Source: Pseudomonadota bacterium
GTDB lineage: Bacteria > Desulfobacterota > Desulfobulbia > Desulfobulbales > Desulfocapsaceae
Reading direction: 5' to 3'
Assembly: GCA_030671085.1 (NCBI GenBank)
Contig: DAOVAI010000002.1
Span: 1 to 59,118, forward strand
DNA: 59,118 nucleotides
The notes beneath the pieces were generated by a model. The model made no database searches. It saw only the letters and a list, made by a program, of their open reading frames with translations, and was not told the DNA's origin. Positions 1 to 5,984 of the stretch are shown here, piece after piece (position 1 is the stretch's first letter; the number at the start of each line of letters is the position of its first letter). Made by a program: the position numbers and the translations under genes.

Positions 1-206
1 TCCTGGAAGATATCTTTCATATCGCCAAGTTTTTCCACCTTGGCTCCCAGCATACTGTAGATAATGGGAAGGTAGTAGGCGGTGTTGGGAAAGGAGACTT
101 CCTTATCCTCACCAAATTTTTTCACAGCATCTTCATAGCTGTTTTCGGCCATATCTATAATTTTCTGCGCTCCTCGGATGGCTGCAGAACAAATTATTTT
201 CGACAT
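1..206 (-). CDS. acsB: Acetyl-CoA synthase (CODH/ACS complex, beta subunit), N-terminal part
   Basis: Only the first 68 codons are in the window; the gene runs off the left edge. The N-terminus (MSKIICSAAIRGA) and the later stretches FPNTAYYLP and LGDMKD are characteristic of AcsB/CdhC, the Ni-Fe-S enzyme that joins CO, a corrinoid-bound methyl group and CoA into acetyl-CoA in the cytoplasm. The ATG at 206 lies 57 bases after the stop of the upstream MetF-AcsD fusion gene on the same strand, and an AGGGAGCT-like purine run precedes it, so it is probably the fourth gene of the folD-cooS-metF/acsD-acsB operon. The metal-binding A-cluster region is outside the window and cannot be checked. Confidence 0.9.
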   Translation of the reverse strand, partial: MSKIICSAAIRGAQKIIDMAENSYEDAVKKFGEDKEVSFPNTAYYLPIIYSMLGAKVEKLGDMKDIFQ

Positions 207-263: not shown

Positions 264-2963
264 TCAGTCCATGAGACCTGCAATAAGTGACTTGGTCAAG
301 GCAACGGCCTTGGGATGACGCATGATCATCACCTCTCCACCTGCCATCAACATACAGCTGGCAGTAAGTGCTTCCATCATGATACCACGGGTCTCCTGGT
401 CACCAATCATGTCATCACTTGGAAGTTTGGTCTCCTTCGCCTTCCACACCTCGCAACCAAGGTTACAGATGATGGGAACCTGGAGTTTGTCATCCTGCTG
501 AGTGAGAGCGGCAATGCGAATACGCTCCATGACCGAATAGGTGTATTCAATACCGTAGCCCAGAGCACCTACAGAGGGATCCATGAGGACGGTATCAAGG
601 GATACACCAAGATTTTCCAGGAGAATGTTCAGCTGTTTTGCCAGGTTGACATCAATGGGAGAAGCGGCAACGATCGGATGCTGGAAGGCCATGGCTGTGG
701 CACCGATGGTGCGGTAATTAGCGTCTTCCAGAGGTGAAAGACAGACCTTTTTGTCACCAATAACCGAGGTGATATCTCTTAAGGTCTCAGTGTCTTTATC
801 AGAATTCCCACAACCCCAGACAATGATGGGGACATCTACGGCTGCAATGACATCGGCTGCTACTTTTGCGGCATCTGCAGCTGAGCGATTCATGCCATTG
901 GGATCGGTAGAACCAAGGGAGATAGCAATCGCCTCTGCGCCATAGGTCTTCACACATTTTTGAGCCCAGGCAACAGGATTGTCCAGGACATCGCTGAAGT
1001 GGCTGGATACTGTCTCCGGCCATTCATCAGGTTTCACATCTGTTACTTCCATGGCAATAAGAGGCTTGTTGGGATGATCTCCCTCAAAGAGCTGGAAGGG
1101 CATGGAGGTACTGCCACCAACGGTCTTCACATTGTCGCCATTGCCCATATTCACTGAACGAATGGCTCCGCTGTAATTTGTCTGGTAGCTCTTTGGATCA
1201 ACTTTAGTGCTTCGATCCGCAAGAGGTGTTGTTTCTTTGGCAAGCTCAGCAACGCCGGTATCAGCTGCAGGGGCAGGTGCTGCTGCTTTTGCGGCCTCAG
1301 TAGCTTTGGCATCGGCCTCTGCTTTGGCCTTGGCTGCTGCCTCTGCCTTGGCTTTCGCCTCATCAGCTGCCTTTACCTCAGCTGCTGCTTTTGCATCTGC
1401 ATCAGCTTTCACCTTTGCTTCTTCGTCAGCCTTGGCCTTGGCCTCGGCTGCTGCTTTTGCCTCTTCATCAGTCTTTGCTTTGGCAGCTGCATCGGACTCG
1501 GCTTTTGCCTTTGCATCGGCAGCGGCCTTGGCTTCTGCCTCTGCTTTTGCCTTAGCAGCAGCCGCAGCTTTTTCAGCAGAGTCGTCTGCAGGAGCAGCTG
1601 GAGTGACAGGCGCCGCAGGAGTTGCTGCAGCAGGTATTGCCTCAGGCTCCCTTTTCAAGATGGCATGGGCACCTGCAAAACTTGTCAAGGCATCAAACTG
1701 GTCATCGGTTAATCCATATGCCTTCTTCAATGCGGCAAGGCCAAGATTTACAGAATCAAGGGCCATGATCCGTTCTTTCTCATTCATTTCATGCTCTCCT
1801 GAATCATCCGTACCCTGGGGTACGGCAGTTGTTGTGCTGATGGTCGTATCAATGGATGCCGCAGCAACAGCTTGCAGGGCATCGCTTTTGGCCTGTTGGA
1901 TGAGTGTATCGGCCTCGGTACGTGCTGCGGCTATAATCTTGGCTGCCTCTGTCTTGGCTTCTTCGAGCACCTTGTCAGTATCAACTGCCTGAACAGTGAT
2001 AGCCTCCCTGGGTTCTTCAGCTTTAGCAGGCGCCTCAGCTTCTGTGACACCCGGCCTTGGAAGAAGCCCTGCTCGATTGAGGATCTCAGGAACTGCGCTT
2101 TCCCACTCAATGGCCATGCAGTGGACTCCGGCAACTCCCTTTATCTCTTTCACCTGATTGATGATGTCAACACAGATCTGGATACCCTCGTCCTGCTTAT
2201 CCTTGGCATCCTTCATCCGCTGAATCACATCATCAGTCACATCCATGCCTGGAACATAATTCTTCATGTAACGAGCCATACCCAATGACTTGGGAGGCGT
2301 CACACCGGCAAGGATATAACATTTTTCATCCAGGCCAAGATCCCTCACCATTTCCATAAACTTGGCAAATTTCTCGACATTGTAGATGATCTGAGTCTGA
2401 ATAAAGTCAGCACCTGCGGTCACCTTTTTTCCAAGGCGAACAGCCCGGTACTCAAAGGGATAGGCAAAGGGGTTGGCAGCGGCTCCGAGGAAGAGCTTTG
2501 GTTCATCGCTCTTGATCTCTTCTCCGCACTGGAAGCGCTTCTCGTCACGCATTCCCTTCATCATCCCCAGCATCTGGATGGAGTCCATATCAAAGACTCC
2601 CTTGGACCCAGGATGATTACCAAACTTCTGGTGGTCACCGGTGAGGCAGAGCAGATTTTTCAGGCCAAGGGCTGAGGCTCCAAGGATGTCCGACTGCATG
2701 CCGATCCGGTTACGGTCTCGGCAGGTCATCTGGATGACAGGCTCAACTCCTTCCTCTTTTGCAATCAATCCGGCTGCAATGGATGACATGCGTACAATTG
2801 CTGTCTGACAGTCTGTAATATTGACTGCATCCACATTTCCTTTCAACAGCCGTGCTTTTTCACGAACCGTCTCCGGATTTCCGCTTTTAGGGGGGCCAAG
2901 TTCGCCAGTTACAGCAAATGTCCCCTCTTTTAATATTTTCTCTAGATTACTGCCCGACTTCAT
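264..2963 (-). CDS. MetF-like methylenetetrahydrofolate reductase fused to corrinoid protein small subunit (AcsD/CdhD)
   Basis: An uninterrupted 899-codon frame with two enzyme modules. Residues 1-303 resemble short MetF (5,10-methylene-THF reductase; motifs VTGELGPPKSG, NITDCQ, LCLTGDH, AIEWESAVP). Residues 580-899 resemble the delta/small subunit of the corrinoid iron-sulfur protein (SLGSTDPNG, IIVWGCGN, DPSVGALGYGIEYTYS), the partner that carries the methyl group to acetyl-CoA synthase. Between them lie a charged linker (304-392), a small helical segment (393-440) and about 140 residues of Ala/Lys/Glu-rich TolA-like sequence, probably one long helix. The ATG at 2963 is preceded by AGGAGGGG at good spacing, which is better than the TTG 27 bases upstream. 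AcsD alone is usually near 320 residues and short MetF near 300, so the fusion is unusual. A second AGGAG-ATG signal at 1785-1800 may produce the AcsD half separately. Confidence 0.88.
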   Translation of the reverse strand: MKSGSNLEKILKEGTFAVTGELGPPKSGNPETVREKARLLKGNVDAVNITDCQTAIVRMSSIAAGLIAKEEGVEPVIQMTCRDRNRIGMQSDILGASALGLKNLLCLTGDHQKFGNHPGSKGVFDMDSIQMLGMMKGMRDEKRFQCGEEIKSDEPKLFLGAAANPFAYPFEYRAVRLGKKVTAGADFIQTQIIYNVEKFAKFMEMVRDLGLDEKCYILAGVTPPKSLGMARYMKNYVPGMDVTDDVIQRMKDAKDKQDEGIQICVDIINQVKEIKGVAGVHCMAIEWESAVPEILNRAGLLPRPGVTEAEAPAKAEEPREAITVQAVDTDKVLEEAKTEAAKIIAAARTEADTLIQQAKSDALQAVAAASIDTTISTTTAVPQGTDDSGEHEMNEKERIMALDSVNLGLAALKKAYGLTDDQFDALTSFAGAHAILKREPEAIPAAATPAAPVTPAAPADDSAEKAAAAAKAKAEAEAKAAADAKAKAESDAAAKAKTDEEAKAAAEAKAKADEEAKVKADADAKAAAEVKAADEAKAKAEAAAKAKAEADAKATEAAKAAAPAPAADTGVAELAKETTPLADRSTKVDPKSYQTNYSGAIRSVNMGNGDNVKTVGGSTSMPFQLFEGDHPNKPLIAMEVTDVKPDEWPETVSSHFSDVLDNPVAWAQKCVKTYGAEAIAISLGSTDPNGMNRSAADAAKVAADVIAAVDVPIIVWGCGNSDKDTETLRDITSVIGDKKVCLSPLEDANYRTIGATAMAFQHPIVAASPIDVNLAKQLNILLENLGVSLDTVLMDPSVGALGYGIEYTYSVMERIRIAALTQQDDKLQVPIICNLGCEVWKAKETKLPSDDMIGDQETRGIMMEALTASCMLMAGGEVMIMRHPKAVALTKSLIAGLMD

Positions 2964-3020
2964 CGGTTGGACCCCTCCTGCCAAATTCAAACTCGTTCAA
3001 GAATGATATTCTCGTTAGAA

Positions 3021-5009
3021 TTACTTATGTCCACATCCCACTCCGGGAATACCCTCTCCGGCACCAAGATCACGACGCATCTCCATATCAAAGAGGACAC
3101 GATCCTGTTTCTTATTAATACCAAGGGCATCACGTTTTCCGTCAATGGCCTTAATCATCTTCTGGGCAAGCTTGATGGGATCTTCCTCATAATCCCAACT
3201 CGCGCCATATTCTTCTGCCATTCCCTTGAGGACAAACTCGTTCATCTCTTTGGAACCGGTCACCGGCAGGTTCTGGAAGATAACATGGGCGCCAGAGGTG
3301 ACAAAATACTGGCCAATGGCAATGGCCTTCTCACTCATCCATAGAGGTGCGGTGCCGCAGGCAGGCAGCTCAGAGATATCATCACCAAGCCCACCTTCTT
3401 TAACCATTGCAGTAAGGGCAATAAGCAGGCGACTGTTATCAACGCAGGAGCCCACATGGAGAACCGGAGGCATACCTACGGTCTCGCAGACCTCTGCAAG
3501 CCCTTCACCGCAGTACTCGGCTGCAGCCTCGGGCCGCATCAATCCCATTCGTCCCAAGGCCTGGGCCGCACAACCAGTTGCCAGGACAAGAACGTTGTTT
3601 TTCAAGAGTTCGCAGGCAATCTTAAAATGCACATCATCGGAATATTTATAGTGCTCACAACCAACGAGTGCTCCAATACCTTTAATACGACCATTGATGA
3701 TATTATCATTTAAGGGGCGATAACTCTGACGGAAATGACCGCCCAGCATGTAGTTGATGGTCTCATGACTAAAGCCGACAACCACATCAAACTTATGCTC
3801 TTTGGGAATATAATATTCGCCACGTTTCTTAAAGTTGTTAATGGCATGGGTCAGAATCCTCTTGGCAGAACCCAATGCATCTTTTTCCTCAAACTGCATA
3901 TGAATCGCATCCGGCATCTTGGCGCGGTAGTTGGTGGTGATAATATCAGTATGCTTGTTCTTTACCACTTGGGCCACAGACTGCATCACACACTGGACGT
4001 CGACTACCATGGCCTCAACAGCGCCGGTTGCCAAAACCATTTCCTGCTGGATAAAAGATCCTGCCACCGGAATTCCACGGCGCATGAGAATCTCGTTTCC
4101 AGTACAGCAGACACCGGCCAGATTAATGCCCTTGGCACCAACTTTCTTGGCCAGAGCCAGTATCTCTTCATCTTCAGCTGCCAGACAGAGGGCCTCTGCA
4201 AGCAGTGGCTCATGCCCATGCACAGTGACATTGACCTGCTCTGCATCAAGGACACCAAGATCAATGAGGGATCTTATGGGGACCGGGGTACCGAACATGA
4301 TATCAGTGAGTTCAGTGGAAAGCATGGAAGCCCCCCAGCCGTCCGCCAGAGAACAGCGGGCAGCCTGCTTCATGATATTTTTGTATTCCTGATCTACACC
4401 CATATGGGTACGATGCATGGTCTCCACCACCTCACGATCAATTCCACGCGGTTCGACACCTTTTTCCTTCCAGATCTTCTGCTGTTTTTCAGGAGCACGC
4501 TTGAGCATGGTGAGCGTTCCCTGCTGCTGGCCAAATTCAGACAGGGCCTTTTCACCAAGCTCCAGGGCAATCTCGTTTTTATCCCTGCCCTCAGTCTCAA
4601 TACCGTAGATATCTGCCAGAGTATGCAGCTTAGCAACGTCTTTGATCTCATGGGGGGTGTTGCCCTTGGCAGTCTCGATAAATCCCATGACCATCTCACG
4701 GGCATGGTCAGTATGGGCCGCAGTTCCGGCAGCAACAAGACGGGCAAAGTTCCTGGCGACAACGGTGGCAGCCGTGGCACCACAGACGCCGATCATTTGC
4801 TCAACACCATCGATGATCTGACAGGGTCCCATGTTACAGATACGGCAGCAGGTTCCCCCTGAACCAAAAAGACAGGCTGACATGCCTCGATCCTCAATAC
4901 GGTCGTAAGCAGTCCTTACCTGTTTAGCCAAATCCTGATTGAGCAGGTCTTTGGTTGAAGCACCGGTGATTTCGTTACAGGATTCACATCCACCTTTGCT
5001 GTTGCTCAT
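3021..5009 (-). CDS. cooS: Anaerobic carbon monoxide dehydrogenase catalytic subunit
   Basis: A 662-residue protein, normal for CooS/AcsA. It oxidises CO, or reduces CO2 to CO, at a Ni-Fe-S C-cluster in the cytoplasm and feeds CO to acetyl-CoA synthase. The N-terminal cysteine cluster (CLFGSGGTCCRICNMGPC, residues about 46-63) matches the B/D cluster ligands. The stretches VTVHGHEP, GVCCTGNE, VVDVQCVMQ, GCEHYKYSDD and ATGCAAQALG carry the His and Cys positions expected around the C-cluster. I prefer the ATG at 5009, which has GGAGG seven bases upstream, over a longer frame six codons earlier. The gene sits between folD and the MetF-AcsD fusion, which ties it to the acetyl-CoA pathway and not to a respiratory CO operon; no cooF- or hydrogenase-like gene is nearby. 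Confidence 0.96.
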   Translation of the reverse strand: MSNSKGGCESCNEITGASTKDLLNQDLAKQVRTAYDRIEDRGMSACLFGSGGTCCRICNMGPCQIIDGVEQMIGVCGATAATVVARNFARLVAAGTAAHTDHAREMVMGFIETAKGNTPHEIKDVAKLHTLADIYGIETEGRDKNEIALELGEKALSEFGQQQGTLTMLKRAPEKQQKIWKEKGVEPRGIDREVVETMHRTHMGVDQEYKNIMKQAARCSLADGWGASMLSTELTDIMFGTPVPIRSLIDLGVLDAEQVNVTVHGHEPLLAEALCLAAEDEEILALAKKVGAKGINLAGVCCTGNEILMRRGIPVAGSFIQQEMVLATGAVEAMVVDVQCVMQSVAQVVKNKHTDIITTNYRAKMPDAIHMQFEEKDALGSAKRILTHAINNFKKRGEYYIPKEHKFDVVVGFSHETINYMLGGHFRQSYRPLNDNIINGRIKGIGALVGCEHYKYSDDVHFKIACELLKNNVLVLATGCAAQALGRMGLMRPEAAAEYCGEGLAEVCETVGMPPVLHVGSCVDNSRLLIALTAMVKEGGLGDDISELPACGTAPLWMSEKAIAIGQYFVTSGAHVIFQNLPVTGSKEMNEFVLKGMAEEYGASWDYEEDPIKLAQKMIKAIDGKRDALGINKKQDRVLFDMEMRRDLGAGEGIPGVGCGHK

Positions 5010-5096: not shown

Positions 5097-5984
5097 CTAA
5101 ACAAGATTAGCTGCCATCTTGGCGGCCTGTACAGTATTTTTCATCAACATGGTAATGGTCATGGGGCCGACACCGCCAGGTACCGGGGTAATACAGGAAG
5201 CCTTTTCTTTCACAGCTTCAAAGTCAACATCACCGGCCAGAATCGCCTTACCGCTGGAAGCCTTACCGATACGGTTGACACCGACATCGATGATAGCTGC
5301 ACCATCTTTTACCATATCTGCGGTGACCATCTTGGGGACACCAACGGCTGCAATGATGATGTCAGCACGTCTGCAGTGTTCTGCCATATTTTTGGTCCGG
5401 GTGTGACAGAGGGTAATAGTGGCATTTCCCCCCTCACGCTTCTGCAGCATCAGGTTGGCAATGGGCTTGCCAACAATGTTGGAACGACCGATAATCACGA
5501 CCTCTGCACCGCTGGTCTCCACACCGCTTCTGGTAAGGAGTTCAAGGATACCGTGCGGAGTACAGGGCAGGAAGCACTGCTCGCCTAGGACCATCTTCCC
5601 GACATTTACAGGATGAAAGCCGTCAACATCCTTATCAGGATCAATGGCATAAAGCACTGCTGCCTCGTTGATATGCTTAGGCAGAGGCAGCTGAACGAGA
5701 ATGCCGTTAATTTTTGGATCGTTATTGTACTTGTCGACCAGGGCCAGCAGATCCGCCTCGCTGGTATCAGGATCAAGGGTAACCTGCTCAGAATGGATGC
5801 CCAGGGCGTGGGCAGTCTTGTTTTTGGCGGCAACATAAGATTGAGATGCTGGATCCTCACCCACAAGAATAGTCACAAGACCGGGTACAATATTATGTTT
5901 TTCTTTCAATTCAGCAATTTCAGTAGTCAACTCCTCACGAATTGTCTTCGCAATCTCTGTTCCGCTTATAAGCTTTGCCGTCAT
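5097..5984 (-). CDS. folD: Bifunctional methylene-THF dehydrogenase / methenyl-THF cyclohydrolase
   Basis: A 295-residue FolD of standard length. It interconverts 10-formyl-, 5,10-methenyl- and 5,10-methylene-tetrahydrofolate using NAD(P), the steps just before MetF in the methyl branch of the acetyl-CoA pathway. Visible signatures are VGEDPASQSYVAAKNK (substrate-site Lys in the YVxxK motif), QLPLPKH, DVDGFHP, and VIIGRSNIVGKP with CHTRT for the nucleotide domain, ending in PVPGGVGPMTI. GAGGAA lies upstream of the ATG at 5984. As the first gene of the folD-cooS-metF/acsD-acsB cluster it probably carries the operon promoter in the long spacer to its right, though no clear promoter was found there. 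Confidence 0.97.
   Translation of the reverse strand: MTAKLISGTEIAKTIREELTTEIAELKEKHNIVPGLVTILVGEDPASQSYVAAKNKTAHALGIHSEQVTLDPDTSEADLLALVDKYNNDPKINGILVQLPLPKHINEAAVLYAIDPDKDVDGFHPVNVGKMVLGEQCFLPCTPHGILELLTRSGVETSGAEVVIIGRSNIVGKPIANLMLQKREGGNATITLCHTRTKNMAEHCRRADIIIAAVGVPKMVTADMVKDGAAIIDVGVNRIGKASSGKAILAGDVDFEAVKEKASCITPVPGGVGPMTITMLMKNTVQAAKMAANLV

What the first reader, a model, noticed from the sequence alone, without database searches (positions are those of the whole stretch)
264..2963. MetF and the corrinoid-protein small subunit are fused through a long Ala/Lys/Glu helix
The frame joins an approximately 303-residue MetF-like reductase to a 320-residue AcsD/CdhD domain, with about 275 residues of charged linker between them. 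Physically tethering methyl-THF production to the corrinoid methyl acceptor would be a scaffold for the Wood-Ljungdahl methyl branch. The textbook arrangement has these as separate genes, and the MetV partner normally next to metF is not seen in this window.
Basis: partly seen in the sequence, partly recalled or inferred. Interest (0 to 1): 0.7.

Follow-up and report, generated by a model that had tools for sequence, protein, structure and literature searches.

The report
MetF–AcsD fusion with hidden internal start
Across a whole order of sulfur-cycling bacteria, two carbon-fixation proteins are made as one long chain from one gene, and a strictly preserved second start signal in the middle of that gene very probably also makes the back half as a separate protein, so one gene would yield both the tethered and the free form.

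Summary
Window 264–2963 (minus) is one open frame of 899 aa: MetF (1–303), a ~287-residue connector, and AcsD (590–899). It is not a sequencing error. The same fusion is found in 9 families of the order and about 10 further families of the phylum. The gene lies in the order folD–acsA–metF::acsD–acsB–acsC.

The connector is not one charged helix. It contains a conserved two-helix domain (393–440) followed by a ~96-residue Ala/Lys/Glu helix.

That domain starts at Met393, preceded by a Shine-Dalgarno sequence (AGGAGA, 7 nt, ATG). GGAGA-N7-ATG is present in all 66 intact fused genes of the order examined. The Gly389 codon is always GGA: zero third-position changes on a 64-gene tree, against a mean of 22 (next lowest 11) for 132 comparable codons. 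Outgroup fusions keep the domain but mostly have Leu there. One relative has metF and acsD as separate genes, with acsD starting at the analogous place.

Best reading: one gene, two products, the 95-kDa MetF–AcsD and a 53-kDa AcsD. The tethering function is plausible but unproven. MetV and AcsE are encoded elsewhere. No report of the fusion or the internal start was found in the papers searched.

The parts
264..2963 (-). metF::acsD fused open reading frame, 899 aa, 95.1 kDa
2972..2979 (-). Shine-Dalgarno of the main start (AGGAGGGG, 8 nt before ATG 2963)
   Evidence: sequence; duplex energy -10.8
2055..2963 (-). MetF (methylenetetrahydrofolate reductase) domain, residues 1-303
   Evidence: Pfam PF02219 E 2.7e-37; model matches solved MTHFRs with target-normalised TM about 0.8
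1788..2054 (-). linker 1, residues 304-392; contains a predicted helix 329-367 and ends in a low-confidence stretch 364-393
1795..1800 (-). internal Shine-Dalgarno AGGAGA; GGAGA invariant in the order
1785..1787 (-). internal ATG (Met393), proposed start of free AcsD (507 aa, 52.7 kDa)
1644..1787 (-). conserved two-helix domain (MNEKER...FAGAHAILKREP), residues 393-440; no Pfam match
1197..1643 (-). linker 2, residues 441-589, Ala/Lys/Glu/Asp-rich; predicted single helix 463-558
267..1196 (-). AcsD/CdhD (CFeSP small subunit) domain, residues 590-899
   Evidence: PF03599 E 1.1e-42; phmmer 2h9a_B E 1.5e-81; Foldseek 4djd_D, 2h9a_B
3021..5009 (-). acsA/cooS (CO dehydrogenase), upstream neighbour in the operon
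   Evidence: Pfam Prismane/CODH E 1.2e-150
5097..5984 (-). folD
   Evidence: Pfam THF_DHG_CYH
1..206 (-). 5' part of acsB, cut by the contig end; continues on contig C34, followed there by acsC
   Evidence: same gene order in relatives

Best explanation
The locus is a gene fusion that encodes two proteins. Translation from ATG 2963 gives a 95-kDa chain in which the methylene-THF reductase MetF is tethered by a long, mostly helical connector to AcsD, the small subunit of the corrinoid iron-sulfur protein. Translation from a conserved internal ribosome-binding site (AGGAGA-7 nt-ATG, Met393) gives a free 52.7-kDa AcsD that carries the two-helix domain and the Ala/Lys/Glu helix at its N-terminus. 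Both would pair with AcsC, so a subset of CFeSP would carry MetF, and the CFeSP:MetF ratio would be set by how often ribosomes start inside the gene. Shown: the fusion, its conservation and operon; the internal SD and ATG and selection on them at the RNA level. Inferred: that ribosomes use the site, that both products are stable, and that tethering concentrates methyl-THF production at the CODH/ACS machinery.
For: Fusion in 9 families of the order and in about 10 more families of the phylum. Gene order folD-acsA-metF::acsD-acsB-acsC conserved (acsA missing from that place in G051). GGAGA-N7-ATG at the same alignment column in all 64 genes aligned, including members with GC3 0.8-0.9 where GGA is rare. 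Gly389 third position 0 parsimony changes versus mean 22.1, sd 5.3, next lowest 11, over 132 conserved fourfold columns. Third-position changes in codons 389-397 are the fewest of 748 nine-codon windows (60 versus median 174). GC3 falls to 0-0.27 at several codons around the site against 0.56 gene-wide. The 40 nt around the ATG are among the least structured 4.5% (median) of gene windows. SD strength equals that of acsB in the same operon (-7.4 each). Outgroup fusions keep the two-helix domain without this SD and, in most, with Leu at the Met position, so the protein domain does not require it. In G146 metF ends with TAA and a separate acsD begins 15 nt later with its own ATG (MQNEKEL...), at the analogous place. 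Three other relatives have a different strong SD+ATG at that place (L180, L181, L183).
Against: No protein or ribosome-profiling data were available. Relatedness inflates raw counts, although the tree-based test addresses this. An RNA-level signal at a GGA could also be a regulator site. The full-length model has pTM 0.49, so the relative placement of the two barrels is unknown. Many more distant fusions have no clear internal start, so free AcsD is not universally needed.
Confidence: 0.77

Rival explanations
1. Pure scaffold: only the full-length fusion is made and the connector simply tethers MetF to CFeSP for local methyl-THF supply.
For: The frame is uninterrupted and the main start has the strongest SD of the five starts examined in the operon. 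Fusions without an obvious internal start exist in other lineages.
Against: Does not explain the invariant GGA codon, SD-ATG spacing, silent-site constraint and unstructured AT-rich context. AcsE and AcsC are not in the chain.
Confidence: 0.12
2. The GGAGA element is an elongation-pausing or RNA-binding-protein site (for example a CsrA-type GGA motif) that times co-translational folding of MetF or regulates the operon, and no second protein is made.
For: Silent conservation shows RNA-level selection but does not by itself say what the RNA does.
Against: Met393, its 7-nt spacing from GGAGA and the A-rich codons after it are conserved too, which pausing or CsrA binding would not need. G146 uses the analogous place as a real gene start.
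Confidence: 0.07
4. Sequencing or assembly error merging two genes.
For: The window comes from a metagenome-assembled genome at 81% completeness, and the contig ends close by.
Against: The same frame occurs in dozens of independently assembled genomes, one of them a single contig of 3.1 Mb. Two relatives with apparent splits (L085, L092) have runs of N in linker 2.
Confidence: 0.01

Closest known systems
Separate metF and acsD genes of bacterial Wood-Ljungdahl clusters (acetogens and most Desulfobacterota)
   Same: Same two enzyme families; same operon partners acsA, acsB, acsC, folD.
   Different: Here one reading frame with a ~287-residue connector. Most other families of the phylum that match have MetF as a frame of about 310-340 aa.
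MetV-MetF(-HdrABC-MvhD) methylene-THF reductase of Moorella-type acetogens (described for SRB in PMC10553843)
   Same: MetF-family reductase; the genome has metV next to a 4Fe-4S gene and an MvhD/FlpD gene.
   Different: metV is not adjacent to this metF; this MetF is fused to AcsD instead. A second gene in relatives is itself a MetF-MetV fusion.
Corrinoid iron-sulfur protein small subunit AcsD (2h9a_B, 4djd_D)
   Same: The whole AcsD domain aligns over ~300 residues at 41-42% identity, TM 0.89-0.93 to the solved structures.
   Different: Carries an N-terminal two-helix domain, a long helix and MetF, none present in the solved proteins.
Genes with an in-frame internal translation start giving two products (e.g. 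Cas11 from cas8/cas10, PMC11899642; Salmonella N-terminal proteoform pairs, PMC11005335)
   Same: Same principle: internal SD and ATG in frame, C-terminal part made separately.
   Different: Here the long form is a fusion of two whole metabolic enzymes and the short form is one complete enzyme subunit; not reported in the papers searched.

Membership tests
Methylenetetrahydrofolate reductase (MetF, PF02219) | Full-length MTHFR barrel | tested here: met
   PF02219 positions 2-287 of 287, E 2.7e-37; Foldseek to 8eac, 1v93, 1b5t with target-normalised TM 0.78-0.84
Methylenetetrahydrofolate reductase (MetF, PF02219) | Catalytic acidic residues equivalent to E. coli Glu28 and Asp120 | not tested
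   Glu21 and Asp110 are invariant in 56 fused proteins and look equivalent from memory; no residue-level alignment to the E. coli structure was made
MetVF-type reductase | MetV partner encoded next to metF | tested here: not met
   No metV in the operon; metV lies on another contig
MetVF-type reductase | A metV gene in the genome | tested here: met
   PF12225 in 12 of 12 genomes searched, including the window's own
AcsD/CdhD (CFeSP small subunit, PF03599) | CdhD fold over the full domain | tested here: met
   PF03599 E 1.1e-42; NF003376 373 bits over its cut-off of 280, NF040759 310 bits under its cut-off of 430; 2h9a_B E 1.5e-81
AcsD/CdhD (CFeSP small subunit, PF03599) | Partner AcsC with an N-terminal 4Fe-4S domain in the same operon | tested here: met
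   acsC (FeS + CdhD domains) after acsB on contig C34 and in relatives
AcsD/CdhD (CFeSP small subunit, PF03599) | Binds the corrinoid together with AcsC | not testable with these tools
   Needs protein or a complex model
Gene with a functional internal in-frame start | SD-ATG in frame at usable spacing, conserved | tested here: met
Gene with a functional internal in-frame start | Constraint at silent sites confined to the site | tested here: met
Gene with a functional internal in-frame start | Short product detected in cells | not testable with these tools
   No proteomic or Ribo-seq data available

The most novel reading that the evidence does not exclude
A conserved dual-coding arrangement in carbon fixation: one gene makes both a MetF-CFeSP tether and free CFeSP small subunit from an internal start under selection across an entire bacterial order, so that translation sets the share of corrinoid protein carrying its own methyl-THF reductase. 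Similar start sites may have arisen separately in Thermodesulfobacterium-like lineages.
Probability: 0.6. Interest if true: 0.75.

Novelty: new variant of a known kind. Interest (0 to 1): 0.62.

Why it matters
It joins the methyl branch and the corrinoid carrier of the Wood-Ljungdahl pathway in one chain across a large group of sulfur-cycling bacteria, apparently including cable bacteria (a locus labelled Candidatus Electrothrix) and Desulfocapsa. It also shows that automatic annotation can hide AcsD: a published genome of this group lists acsABC and two metF but no acsD (PMC7117923), although its gene is the fusion (locus L079). If the internal start is used, it is a clean case of translation setting the ratio of tethered to free enzyme, and one silent-codon change would test it.

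Tried and rejected
Sequencing or assembly error: rejected by dozens of intact orthologues. Apparent splits in L085 and L092 are runs of N in the low-complexity linker. Idea that the two-helix domain is the N-terminus of ordinary standalone AcsD: standalone AcsD of other genera in the same family (525-551 aa) lacks the domain and is long at its C-terminus instead. Protein-only constraint on GEHEMNEKER: rejected by silent-site data. Ranking all conserved Met codons by SD strength alone did not single out Met393 (Met881 ranks higher on average); the signal is in the invariance, not the strength. My first regular expression for the site used the wrong spacing and reported zero; corrected. The best Pterin_bind hit in each genome is dihydropteroate synthase, not AcsE. 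NCBIfam gave no name for MetV. One region request used an unassigned handle and failed. Literature searches for the fusion found nothing (text of PMC12827605 and PMC4911364 checked). The dataset of 67 GGAGA-N7-ATG genes includes one distant gene (L181) that may be coincidence or convergence.

Full report
Check of the observation. Window 264–2963 on the minus strand is one open frame of 899 residues, 95.1 kDa. Pfam finds MTHFR at residues 7–299 and CdhD at 604–882. phmmer aligns residues 597–892 with the CFeSP small subunit 2h9a_B at E 1.5e-81. AlphaFold2 with 56 fused homologues gives two confident barrels, a helix at 329–367, a helical pair at 391–436 and one 96-residue helix at 463–558 (mean pLDDT 77.7, pTM 0.49). 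Foldseek matches the AcsD part to 4djd_D and 2h9a_B (target TM 0.89–0.93) and the MetF part to solved MTHFRs (about 0.8). The connector is not one homogeneous charged helix.

Is it an artefact? No. Searching 56 genomes, the relatives and the window's own, found complete fused frames in 9 families of the order (f1, f2, f3, f4, f5, f6, f8, f9, f14), at 65–100% MetF-domain identity, one of them on a single-contig 3.1-Mb genome (G038). A phylum sample of 297 genomes added fused frames in about ten more families, while most others that matched carry MetF alone in a frame of about 310–340 aa. A scan of named genomes returned loci labelled Desulfocapsa, Desulfobulbaceae, Candidatus Electrothrix, Desulfurivibrionaceae and Thermodesulfobacteriales. 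The contig of G012, in the window's genus, has the same length (40,682) as a Desulfocapsa sp. MC-05 contig, so the window's genus is probably Desulfocapsa as labelled in public records.

Context. The gene order folD – acsA – metF::acsD – acsB – acsC, followed by NAD(P)-linked molybdopterin/4Fe-4S oxidoreductase genes, is the same in relatives, except that acsA is not at that place in G051. In the window's own genome acsB is cut by the contig end and continues on contig C34 with acsC and the oxidoreductase genes. metV is in the genome but on another contig, behind a 4Fe-4S protein gene and an MvhD/FlpD gene. A relative also has a second MetF that is fused to a MetV-type domain. acsE lies next to a RACo-type activator gene on contig C180. 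So the statement that MetV is absent from the window is true, but the genome does not lack it, and the methyltransferase that must act between MetF and CFeSP is not in the chain.

Aligning the fused proteins showed that linker 1 is variable in sequence and length up to residue ~386, and that conservation starts abruptly at (D/E)(S/A)GE-x-x-MNEKER. The DNA there reads GGA GAR nnn nnn ATG in all 30 genes first examined. In the larger set GGAGA-N7-ATG is in frame in 67 genes: 66 of this order and one distant gene. In the 64 aligned ones the ATG falls in one alignment column. The spacing and strength are those of a normal bacterial start: the duplex energy with the anti-SD, −7.4, equals that of acsB in the same operon.

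Is it more than protein conservation? Four tests say yes. (a) The codon of Gly389 is GGA in 64 of 64 genes; on a tree of these genes its third base changes 0 times, against a mean of 22.1 (sd 5.3, next lowest 11) for 132 conserved fourfold-degenerate columns. In the first 25 genes the gene-wide share of GGA among Gly codons was 5–30%. (b) Third-base changes summed over codons 389–397 are the lowest of 748 nine-codon windows, 60 against a median of 174, and the constraint fades within about ten codons on either side. (c) GC3 drops to 0–0.27 at several codons around the site against 0.56 overall; even genes with GC3 of 0.8–0.9 use GGA and mostly A-rich codons such as AGA here. (d) The 40 nt around the ATG are less structured than about 95% of windows in the gene (median, 32 genes). 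SD strength alone does not single the site out among Met codons; its invariance does.

Evolutionary controls. Fusions outside the order keep a recognisable two-helix domain (e.g. LTSREQMALNALKQGLAALRKA), in several cases followed by what look by eye like TPR repeats, but lack this SD; the Met position is Leu in seven of the sampled outgroup sequences, Ala, Val or Met in single cases, and unaligned in others. The start signal was therefore gained in, or kept only by, this order, and the protein domain does not need it. Thermodesulfobacterium-like genomes show the reverse natural experiment: L180, L181 and L183 are fused with a different strong SD+ATG just before the corresponding helices, others of the group have no such ATG (L186–L188), and G146 has metF ending in TAA and a separate acsD starting 15 nt later as MQNEKELLK…. 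AcsD carrying this N-terminal helical segment is thus made as its own protein in at least one species, if that gene is expressed.

Mechanism proposed. Ribosomes starting at ATG 2963 make MetF–AcsD; ribosomes starting at ATG 1787 make 52.7-kDa AcsD with the two-helix domain and stalk. From the known structures, AcsD is the partner that holds the corrinoid together with AcsC and is not the methyl acceptor alone (general knowledge of CFeSP). The tether would thus place methyl-THF production near CFeSP, AcsE and ACS, while free AcsD would keep enough CFeSP for the carbonyl side. Shown: the gene structure, its conservation and RNA-level selection on the start site. Inferred: use of the site, stoichiometry and channelling.

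Comparison with the literature. Internal in-frame starts that give a second functional protein are known, for example Cas11 from cas8 or cas10 (PMC11899642) and N-terminal proteoforms in Salmonella (PMC11005335). I found no report of a MetF–AcsD fusion: a 2026 study of Wood–Ljungdahl evolution in Desulfobacterota does not mention it (PMC12827605), nor do the T. dismutans genome paper (PMC4911364) or the D. rimicarensis paper, which lists acsABC and two metF but no acsD (PMC7117923); the fused gene of that strain is locus L079. Only open-licence papers were searchable, so prior mention elsewhere cannot be excluded.

Verdict. Real, conserved, and more interesting than described. The parts are known kinds; the arrangement is new as far as could be searched. 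I rate it a new variant of a known kind, interest 0.62.

Noticed in passing
L159:3557-5164 (relative G009) and ~510-540 aa frames in other genomes: A second MetF in these genomes is fused to a MetV-type PF12225 domain (507 aa), while a standalone metV also exists in most of them: three methylene-THF reductase arrangements in one genome.
   Followed up: partly
L035:6663-8240 and similar frames in L036, L037, L043, L044: Standalone AcsD of other genera placed in the same family is 525-551 aa with a ~200-residue C-terminal extension that has no Pfam match, and is only ~51% identical to the fused type.
   Followed up: partly
L061, L062, L063, L113, L118, L119, L125, L126, L128 (connector): In fusions outside the order the connector looks like a coiled coil, the two-helix domain and TPR repeats (judged by eye), suggesting a docking function for the connector.
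   Followed up: partly
L189/L199 (G146): metF and acsD are split by a TAA at the natural end of MetF, with a separate acsD start 15 nt downstream, inside a genus whose other sampled members have the fusion.
   Followed up: yes
L018 (G017) and L034/L041 (G052): Single in-frame TAG codons inside the fused frame (in MetF and AcsD respectively) in draft genomes; errors or decayed genes, not resolved.
   Followed up: no
L113, L168, L062, L167, L174 near residue 375: Some outgroup fusions have a GAGGAGG-like stretch 8 nt before an in-frame ATG within the coiled coil; possibly another internal start, possibly only Glu-Glu-Ala codons.
   Followed up: no
window 1-206 and G000:C34: The window contig ends inside acsB, and contig C34 begins inside the same gene, so the two contigs are neighbours in the genome.
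   Followed up: yes
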